Shown here piece after piece: positions 48,022 to 49,761 of a stretch of DNA of 64,000 bases. The position numbers and the translations under genes are program-made. Origin of the DNA: Bacteroidetes bacterium HGW-Bacteroidetes-6 (GTDB lineage: Bacteria; Bacteroidota; Bacteroidia; Bacteroidales; DTU049); the NCBI GenBank assembly GCA_002842495.1, contig PHDB01000010.1, positions 1-64,000 of the forward strand, in the 5' to 3' direction. The notes beneath the pieces were generated by a model. The model searched no databases. It had not been told where the DNA came from and saw only the letters and a program-made list of their open reading frames with translations. Each line of letters starts with the position of its first letter. Position 1 is the first letter of the stretch.

Positions 48022-48050
48022 TAAAAACTGTCTTCGGGCAGTTTTTTTTA
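48022..48050 (+). terminator. Intrinsic terminator of thrS-infC-rpmI-rplT
   Basis: AAACTGTC-UUCG-GGCAGTTT followed by T run (UUCG tetraloop). Confidence 0.9.
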
Positions 48051-48066
48051 TGTCTGTCGATATGCA

Positions 48067-48074
48067 TATATTTG
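48067..48074 (+). promoter_or_regulatory. -7 box TATATTTG
   Basis: Matches TAnnTTTG, 4 nt before ATG 48079. Confidence 0.5.
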
Positions 48075-48078
48075 CGAA

Positions 48079-49761
48079 ATGAATTTGGAGTCGAAACAAC
48101 AAAAGTGGATTTATGCTGCTGCTCTTGCATGTCTGTGGGCTTCGTCCGAAATAATTCTGGGGAGTTTTCTGCACAATCTTAAAATTCCCATGCGTGGTAC
48201 TATACTTGCTTCCATTGGTGTCGCAATAATGGCTGCAACTGGCTACCGATTCAAACTAAGAGGTATTTATTGGCGCGCCGGATTGCTTACTGCAGCTATG
48301 AAAACGCTGAGTCCAAGTGCAGTTTTGCTGGGTCCAATGCTTGCCATCACCATGCAAGGTCTTATTATGGAGGTTGTTGTTTCAGGTGGAGGCCCCAGAC
48401 GGGTGTTTTTTATACTGGGAGGAGCACTTTCTATTACATGGAACTTTGTTCATCTTATTCTTGGCTATTGGCTTTACTATGGTAACGATGTCATTGAGCT
48501 TTACAACAATTTGGTCGATTATGCACGAAAAGAAACCGGTTGGAGTTTTGTGTCGGGAACAGCTTTGATCGTGGCTTTTGGCTCGGTTTATTTTATTGCG
48601 GGAGCAATTGCAGGTTGGATGGGAACTGCTTTGCGAAAGCCCGGTATATCGAAACCGCTTAACATTCCGCGAAAAGACAAAGCCATTGGGCCGCCGGTTA
48701 AAAAGGTTATAGCCAATTTGCCCGATCGCTCATTGCTTTGGTTCTTTTTGCTGCCATTTATGGTTGCATCGCAGCTTTATATGATGATGTATCTTCCCGT
48801 TGAGGTATGTTTTTTTGCGTGGGCAGCTGCTATTTCGATGCTGATAATTCGTTATCGTTCTTCGTACAAACGATTGGCGAAAATTCGGTTCTGGATTGTG
48901 TTTTTATTACTCACTGTTTTATCGTCGTTACTTCTTGGCCCCACATTGCAGGAAGGTTTGCTTATTGGCTTACGCATGAATATGCGTGCAATTTTATTTG
49001 TGCTGGTACTGGCAGCTCTTAGTTTCGAATTGCGGAACGAAAAACTTACCCGTCAGGTGAACAAGCGTATGAAGAATTTTCTGGCTGTGTTCGAAACATC
49101 GTTCGATACCTTGCCGATGGTAATTTCCATTTTGCCACCTGCGGCAACCATTCTGAAAAAACCGCGCGAATCGTTGTCGTTGTTTGCTGGCACATTTTCG
49201 GTGTGGGTCGATTCGATGTATTTTCGCCAACTCGATTCAATGCCTGTTGTGTTGATTACCGGCGAAAAAGGCAGCGGGAAAAGTCTCCTTATTCAAGAAA
49301 AAATACTTCCCTATCTGGCCGAAAAGCAAGTTGATTATTCGGGTATAGTAATGAACTATGTGTTTGCCGACGACAAGCATATTGGCTATAAAATTCGTTT
49401 GCTGCCCGGCAGCGAAGAAAAAATTCTTGTTGGTCCTGATGTTTCCGATGCTCAACTCACCATTGGACGTTATGCTTTTTCGGCTTCGGCGTTCGATGCA
49501 GGAACAAAACACACCACTGATTTGTTGTCCAAAAGCAAGCTTGTTGTGCTCGATGAATGTGGCTGGCTCGAATCGTACGGACTCGGCTGGTATACGCTGA
49601 TGAAAGAAATCAGAACCCGGGTTGTTCCACTCATTGTGGTTGTTCGCCCTGACCTGAGTAGCGATTTTTGCCAATTCTGGAATGTGAATCCTGTGAAAGA
49701 ACTTGCTCCTGATTCATCGGACGAGGAAGTGAGAGTTGCTGTTGATGGGTTGATGCGATGA
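48079..49761 (+). CDS. Multi-TM membrane protein fused to C-terminal THEP1-like P-loop NTPase
   Basis: Many hydrophobic segments to about residue 320; then VVLITGEKGSGKSLLIQEKILPYL (Walker A) and LVVLDECGWLESYG (DExGxxE-like Walker B). Confidence 0.75.
   Translation: MNLESKQQKWIYAAALACLWASSEIILGSFLHNLKIPMRGTILASIGVAIMAATGYRFKLRGIYWRAGLLTAAMKTLSPSAVLLGPMLAITMQGLIMEVVVSGGGPRRVFFILGGALSITWNFVHLILGYWLYYGNDVIELYNNLVDYARKETGWSFVSGTALIVAFGSVYFIAGAIAGWMGTALRKPGISKPLNIPRKDKAIGPPVKKVIANLPDRSLLWFFLLPFMVASQLYMMMYLPVEVCFFAWAAAISMLIIRYRSSYKRLAKIRFWIVFLLLTVLSSLLLGPTLQEGLLIGLRMNMRAILFVLVLAALSFELRNEKLTRQVNKRMKNFLAVFETSFDTLPMVISILPPAATILKKPRESLSLFAGTFSVWVDSMYFRQLDSMPVVLITGEKGSGKSLLIQEKILPYLAEKQVDYSGIVMNYVFADDKHIGYKIRLLPGSEEKILVGPDVSDAQLTIGRYAFSASAFDAGTKHTTDLLSKSKLVVLDECGWLESYGLGWYTLMKEIRTRVVPLIVVVRPDLSSDFCQFWNVNPVKELAPDSSDEEVRVAVDGLMR

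What the first reader, a model, noticed from the sequence alone, without database searches (positions are those of the whole stretch)
48067..49761. Single-polypeptide membrane protein plus THEP1-like NTPase: candidate undescribed transporter or membrane-signalling ATPase
About 320 residues of multi-TM sequence in two hydrophobic blocks are followed by a P-loop domain with GEKGSGKS and VVLDECGWLE, the motif layout of THEP1-type nucleoside triphosphatases, not of ABC ATPases (no LSGGQ). The first block recalls ECF S-component-like or CPA-type membrane modules and the second (LLLGPTLQEGLLIGLRMNMRAILFVLVLAALSFELR) recalls EcfT. That would make an S+T+NTPase fusion powered by a non-ABC ATPase, which I do not know to be described. 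The domain split is by eye; the NTPase motifs are clear. The gene is monocistronic between terminator and gap, also with a -7 box 4 nt before ATG.
Basis: partly seen in the sequence, partly recalled or inferred. Interest (0 to 1): 0.7.

Follow-up and report, generated by a model that had tools for sequence, protein, structure and literature searches.

The report
Candidate molybdenum-cofactor importer with non-ABC NTPase
This gene belongs to an undescribed transporter-like family (two membrane modules plus a THEP1-type NTPase) that marks bacteria which use molybdenum enzymes but cannot make the molybdenum cofactor, so it may be the missing importer of that cofactor.

Summary
Window 48079-49761 (+) encodes 560 residues: a membrane module S, a second membrane module T, and a P-loop domain matching THEP1-type NTPase_1 (PF03266, E 4e-15), without LSGGQ. 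No library holds this architecture. Relatives show that S, T and N are real, separable modules: fused S-T-N, N-S-T, an S-T gene beside an N gene, or separate S, T and N genes with a TonB-dependent receptor between T and N. S and T resemble ECF S-components and EcfT only below curated cut-offs (T versus TIGR02454, best 2.7e-5): ECF-like, not proven. In 31 of 60 related loci a molybdoenzyme, MobA or XdhC gene lies within 8 kb. In 80 genomes the gene goes with xanthine-dehydrogenase-type molybdoenzymes (39/40 versus 10/40). Twenty-five of 40 gene-bearing genomes have neither MoaC nor MoeA, yet 19 of these keep MobA; none of 24 gene-less genomes lacking both has MobA. Best reading: an importer of molybdenum cofactor (Mo-molybdopterin) driven by a non-ABC NTPase. 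Transport, substrate and the NTPase's role are inferred. The window genome itself has MoaA, MoaC and MoeA, so its own substrate is less certain.

The parts
48024..48049 (+). terminator-like hairpin with T run behind rplT; separates the gene from the upstream ribosomal operon
   Evidence: read directly in the sequence: aaaactg-tcttcggg-cagtttt then T run
48067..48074 (+). TATATTTG, fits the Bacteroidota -7 consensus TAnnTTTG, ends 4 nt before ATG (leaderless or nearly so)
   Evidence: sequence; consensus from general knowledge, not tested
48079..49761 (+). S-T-N fusion gene, 560 aa
   Evidence: ORF; orthologues; AF2 model pLDDT 85
48079..48642 (+). S module, residues 1-188, membrane helices; ECF S-component-like (weak); conserved E24, G28, L31-H32, P37, G40, G135
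   Evidence: alignment A2; stand-alone S genes; sub-threshold PF09819/PF09605 in relatives
48733..49233 (+). T module, residues 219-385, four membrane helices then a helical part; EcfT-like (weak); conserved M300, R303, P346
   Evidence: alignment A7; stand-alone T genes; TIGR02454 hits in relatives
49240..49758 (+). N module, THEP1-type NTPase, residues 388-560
   Evidence: PF03266 E 4.3e-15; all 16 N members match; Foldseek 2i3b human NTPCR E 3e-4
49261..49284 (+). Walker A GEKGSGKS
   Evidence: lysine and glycine invariant in A3
49543..49557 (+). Walker B VVLDE
   Evidence: D and E invariant in A3

Best explanation
The gene encodes a one-chain inner-membrane importer. S binds the substrate, T couples, and the cytosolic THEP1-type NTPase N hydrolyses nucleotide to drive uptake, in the place that a pair of EcfA ABC ATPases would hold. 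In relatives the same three modules are separate subunits and a TonB-dependent receptor brings the substrate through the outer membrane. The substrate of the family is the molybdenum cofactor itself (Mo-molybdopterin, Moco, or a close form such as MPT or a dinucleotide that is trimmed), so the family is a Moco salvage system: cells that lack MoaC, MoaE and MoeA take up Moco and hand it to MobA (for bis-MGD enzymes such as NapA, NarG and PsrA) or to XdhC (for xanthine-dehydrogenase-type enzymes). Shown: module structure, NTPase family, gene linkage, and co-occurrence with Moco users that lack synthesis. Inferred: transport, direction, substrate, and that N energises transport.
For: Linkage: 31 of 60 loci have a molybdoenzyme, MobA or XdhC within 8 kb; MobA overlaps or abuts S-T-N in L104, L109, L122, L123 and L124 and is 39 bp away in L041; XdhC is 37 bp away in L110; a TonB-dependent receptor lies 10-830 bp away in 13 loci. 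In five single-contig genomes 6 of 7 S loci lie within 8 kb of such genes, and these zones cover only 1.3-2.2% of those genomes. Co-occurrence in 80 genomes: XDH-type enzyme 39/40 with S versus 10/40 without (Fisher 5e-12). Among genomes without MoaC: S+XDH+ 27, S+XDH- 1, S-XDH+ 2, S-XDH- 22 (2e-11). 25 S genomes lack both MoaC and MoeA, yet 19 of them keep MobA; 0 of 24 S-less genomes without MoaC and MoeA have MobA. Single-contig genome G135 has NapA, NarG, PsrA, XDH-type genes and MobA but no MoaC, MoeA or MoaE. Missing upstream steps with kept downstream steps point to Moco, not molybdate. Membrane and NTPase anatomy.
Against: No biochemical data. Twelve S genomes, the window genome among them, have MoaC and MoeA (G000 also MoaA), so import is not needed for all of them, although MoaE is undetected in 11 of these 12. 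About thirteen S-T genes have no N gene in the fetched stretch. Five of seven N-S-T variants show no molybdenum neighbours, so substrates may differ within the family. Two S-less genomes (G020, G310) also have XDH-type enzymes without MoaC. Genomes are related and the P values are not corrected for phylogeny. ECF homology stays below cut-offs and structure search did not support it. The window gene has no molybdenum neighbour. Free Moco is unstable (PMC9793310).
Confidence: 0.55

Rival explanations
1. Same machine, but the substrate is molybdate or tungstate: an ECF-like replacement of ModABC.
For: Linkage to molybdoenzymes; ModA above cut-off in 0 of 40 S genomes versus 4 of 40 others; the window genome has MoaA, MoaC and MoeA but no ModA, so it needs a molybdate source.
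Against: 25 S genomes lack MoaC and MoeA, where molybdate alone would be of no use. Two S genomes with a synthesis cluster carry a Wtp-like ABC transporter beside it (L132, L133). MobA and XdhC, not MoeA or MogA, are the close neighbours.
Confidence: 0.15
2. Importer of another substrate (another pterin, a metal chelate or another cofactor) that merely accompanies anaerobic respiration and purine catabolism operons.
For: TonB receptors and respiratory clusters may travel together; five N-S-T variants and the window gene lack molybdenum neighbours.
Against: The link spans different enzymes (nitrate reductases, polysulfide-reductase-type, xanthine-dehydrogenase-type) that share only the cofactor, and MobA, whose known job is Moco.
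Confidence: 0.15
3. Not a transporter: a membrane-bound NTPase that acts in Moco maturation or signalling, for example a membrane-tethered MobB-like chaperone.
For: N has weak similarity to MobB (2 of 16 members, best 1e-3); MobB and THEP1 are both small P-loop NTPases.
Against: Two separate multi-helix modules, TonB receptors in the same operons, and absence of the synthesis pathway that a maturation factor would serve.
Confidence: 0.1

Closest known systems
ECF transporters (EcfS + EcfT + EcfA/EcfA', e.g. CbiMNQO)
   Same: An S-like membrane module, a T-like membrane module and a P-loop NTPase; weak colinear matches of T to CbiQ (TIGR02454) and of S to PF09819 and PF09605
   Different: The NTPase is THEP1-type, not ABC; no LSGGQ; one NTPase domain per chain; matches below every curated cut-off; the window genome also has an ordinary cbiMQO-type set
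THEP1 / NTPCR nucleoside triphosphatases (PF03266; 1ye8, 2i3b)
   Same: N domain by sequence (E 4e-15) and fold (2i3b, TM-score 0.65 normalised by target)
   Different: Solved members are single-domain proteins without membrane parts; here N is fused to or encoded with two membrane modules
Molybdate/tungstate ABC importers ModABC, WtpABC, TupABC
   Same: Serve molybdenum metabolism
   Different: No sequence relation found; ModA above cut-off absent in S genomes; S-T-N occurs also where Moco synthesis is missing
Dietary Moco acquisition in C. elegans (PMC9793310)
   Same: Use of Moco made by other cells
   Different: No transporter identified there; [quoted passage not shown]

Membership tests
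ECF transporter | EcfA-type ABC ATPases with LSGGQ signature | tested here: not met
   N is PF03266; no LSGG in the protein; no ABC ATPase seen beside the split S/T/N operons
ECF transporter | EcfT-type T component | tested here: inconclusive
   TIGR02454 in 4/25 members, best 2.7e-5 but 24 of 111.8 bits; PF02361 6/25, best 0.024; HHalign against 3 CbiQ (shallow) and Foldseek of the T model negative
ECF transporter | six-helix S component | tested here: inconclusive
   PF09819 5/27 members, best 3.2e-4; PF09605 best 0.005, colinear; model has seven helices over residues 2-184, one of them short
THEP1-type NTPase (PF03266) | Match over curated cut-off; Walker A and hhhDExG Walker B | tested here: met
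   56.4 bits over cut-off 23.9; 16 of 16 N members match; motif residues invariant
ABC transporter | ABC signature and ABC_tran domain | tested here: not met
   No ABC_tran hit, no LSGG
Moco salvage importer (function class) | Linked to Moco-using genes and present where synthesis is absent but use persists | tested here: met
Moco salvage importer (function class) | Transports Moco in vivo or in vesicles | not testable with these tools
   needs experiment

The most novel reading that the evidence does not exclude
A previously undescribed class of importer, with ECF-like membrane modules powered by a THEP1-type NTPase instead of ABC ATPases, takes up intact molybdenum cofactor (through a TonB receptor in many relatives) and lets Moco-auxotrophic Bacteroidota run nitrate reductases and xanthine-dehydrogenase-type enzymes on cofactor made by other cells.
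Probability: 0.5. Interest if true: 0.95.

Novelty: categorically new. Interest (0 to 1): 0.85.

Why it matters
[quoted passage not shown] Genomes with molybdoenzymes and MobA but without MoaC, MoaE and MoeA, nearly all of them carrying this one gene family, would make Moco a shared community vitamin and give a concrete gene to test. It would also add a non-ABC NTPase as the motor of an ECF-like importer, and would give THEP1-type NTPases, whose biological role is unclear to my knowledge, a transport function.

Tried and rejected
PDB sequence search with the full protein and with S or T profiles: no meaningful hit. Foldseek with the whole model found only the NTPase and spurious transporters; Foldseek with the T-only model (pLDDT 76) found nothing. 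HHalign of T versus three CbiQ and S versus three CbiM: no signal; a weak test because the targets hold three sequences. A first MSA with stand-alone T rows misplaced them and was not used for folding. Plasmid collection: no relative. Literature: no paper found on THEP1 with ECF, on ECF with molybdate as a described substrate, or on a bacterial Moco importer; the library holds open-licence papers only. PF00384 alone was rejected as a molybdoenzyme marker because it also hits NuoG-like and ActB-like frames; PF20256 and MobA were used instead. CPA-type membrane similarity: no support. Phyla other than the window's were not surveyed.

Full report
OBSERVATION. The ORF 48079-49761 (+, 560 aa) is present as described. 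The NTPase domain matches PF03266 NTPase_1 at residues 391-530 (E 4.3e-15, 56.4 bits over a cut-off of 23.9); the membrane part has no match above cut-off in Pfam or NCBIfam. Walker A (395-402) and Walker B (489-493) are single and LSGG is absent. The AlphaFold2 model built from 35 family sequences is confident (pLDDT 85, pTM 0.78): helices over residues 2-184, a poorly ordered linker near 189-209, helices 207-383, then an alpha/beta NTPase.

THE MODULES ARE REAL. Searches of the same bacterial family gave orthologues at 86, 66 and 47% identity. A phylum sample gave fused relatives and, in two genomes, separate genes S (about 200 aa), T (about 180 aa), a TonB-dependent receptor, and N. A profile search of one class of the phylum found S in 55 of 197 genomes. 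Among the loci examined the census is: S-T-N fusions 17 including the window gene, N-S-T 7, S-T fusion with an N gene beside it about 15, S-T without an N gene in the fetched stretch about 13, and separate S and T genes in seven loci, with N found in five of them (two automatic N assignments, L086 and L120, were discarded by hand as other ATPases, and for L121 and L107 an N gene was found by six-frame search).

WHAT S AND T RESEMBLE. Member-by-member scans put ECF families on top, and in the right places: T against TIGR02454 (cobalt ECF T component) in 4 of 25 members, best 2.7e-5, colinear from the N-terminus (4-101 of the protein to 10-114 of the profile), and PF02361 in 6 of 25 (best 0.024); S against PF09819 (5 of 27, best 3.2e-4) and PF09605 (3 of 27, best 0.005). 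From general knowledge PF09819 and PF09605 are ECF S-component-type families. All these are far below the curated cut-offs; profile comparison with three-sequence CbiQ and CbiM sets and Foldseek of the T model gave nothing. I therefore call the membrane part ECF-like and do not file the protein as an ECF transporter: the defining ABC ATPase was tested and is absent.

GENOMIC CONTEXT POINTS TO MOLYBDENUM COFACTOR. Clustering of all ORFs around 61 loci gave, as the most frequent functionally telling neighbour families, the catalytic subunit of Mo-bisPGD oxidoreductases (18 loci), a CMD-family protein (16), the Fe-S partner (14), TonB-dependent receptors (13) and MobA (11) (identities checked with Pfam). 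A direct count found a molybdoenzyme, MobA or XdhC within 8 kb in 31 of 60 loci. MobA overlaps or abuts the fused gene in five loci (from few genera), XdhC lies 37 bp away in L110, and in L111 a MOSC-like protein abuts the S-T gene (identity by eye). Five single-contig genomes hold seven S loci; six lie within 8 kb of molybdenum genes, and these zones cover only 1.3-2.2% of the genome.

SYNTHESIS IS MISSING WHERE THE GENE IS. In the same 80 genomes (40 with S, 40 without) I searched molybdoenzymes and Moco synthesis genes (table). XDH-type enzymes: 39/40 versus 10/40. MobA at E 1e-12 or better: 33/40 versus 11/40. MoaC: 12/40 versus 16/40. MoeA: 15/40 versus 16/40. MoaE: 1/40 versus 10/40. Among genomes without MoaC, S and XDH-type enzymes nearly coincide (27 with both, 22 with neither, 1 and 2 exceptions). 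Twenty-five S genomes lack MoaC and MoeA, and 19 of them keep MobA; of 24 S-less genomes lacking both, none has MobA. The single-contig genome G135 is the clearest case: NapA, NarG, PsrA, XDH-type genes and MobA, no MoaC, MoeA or MoaE, and three S loci, all beside molybdenum genes. The S genomes without MoaC of that class span eleven bacterial families. Within families f15, f20 and f41 the S-less genomes either have MoaC or have no XDH-type enzyme. The P values ignore relatedness.

MECHANISM. Cells with molybdoenzymes and MobA but no way to make molybdopterin or insert molybdenum must obtain a finished or nearly finished cofactor. The one membrane system they share, often coded beside MobA, XdhC and TonB receptors, is S-T-N. 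Because MoeA is missing in most and MobA is kept, Mo-molybdopterin is the most economical substrate; metal-free MPT would fit the few that keep MoeA with MobA only (G062, G396). The NTPase, with intact catalytic motifs, is fused to or encoded next to the membrane modules in most loci and takes the place of EcfA. Shown: anatomy, linkage, co-occurrence. Inferred: transport, inward direction, substrate, role of N.

THE WINDOW GENE. Its genome (G000) has MoaA, MoaC and MoeA, MobA, two XDH-type enzymes and a formate-dehydrogenase-like molybdoenzyme, no ModA and no detectable MoaE. The gene lies in a ribosomal neighbourhood, not next to molybdenum genes. Two readings remain for it: supplementary Moco or MPT import (needed if MoaE is truly missing), or a molybdate specificity. 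I put the family hypothesis first and hold the window gene's own substrate as less certain.

KNOWN OR NEW. No paper in the searchable library was found that describes this architecture or a bacterial Moco importer. PMC9793310 states that the prevailing view is de novo synthesis in cells that need Moco and that uptake of exogenous Moco had not been examined or observed in organisms other than C. elegans. The search covers open-licence papers only, so a description not held there is possible.

Noticed in passing
L043, L044, L051, L085, L088, L089, L090, L092, L095, L102, L108, L109, L117, L122-L124; also L129:8619-8936: A 103-107 aa carboxymuconolactone-decarboxylase-family (AhpD-like) gene sits beside S-T or S-T-N genes in 16 loci and in L129 directly before moeA-mobA; its role in Moco metabolism is unknown.
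   Followed up: partly
L037:4852-5433 and L035:17891-18469: A second, stand-alone S paralogue without its own T or N lies about 9-10 kb from the split S-T-receptor operon, between cytochrome and two-component genes of the nitrate-respiration cluster.
   Followed up: no
L038, L039, L040, L045, L094: N-S-T order variants with a shortened T part and no molybdenum neighbours, so they may have another substrate.
   Followed up: no
window genome G000 (C134, C9) and 10 other S genomes: MoaC and MoeA are present but MoaE (PF02391) is not detected: a divergent MPT synthase or a real gap in the pathway.
   Followed up: no
L083:328-3076 (G000:C47): Ordinary cobalt/nickel-type ECF set (CbiM, a small membrane protein, CbiQ, ABC ATPase) in the window genome, a useful contrast to S-T-N.
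   Followed up: partly
L133:1237-11235; L132:3606-9912: Wtp-like ABC transporter in one cluster with moeA, moaA, moaC and a MOSC-like protein; in L133 next to an aldehyde-ferredoxin-oxidoreductase-like gene, suggesting a separate tungsten pathway in two S genomes.
   Followed up: no
L048:9061-10935: The S-T-N relative of G025 has a repeated GEHPGEQSGDLPG-type insertion inside its NTPase domain.
   Followed up: no
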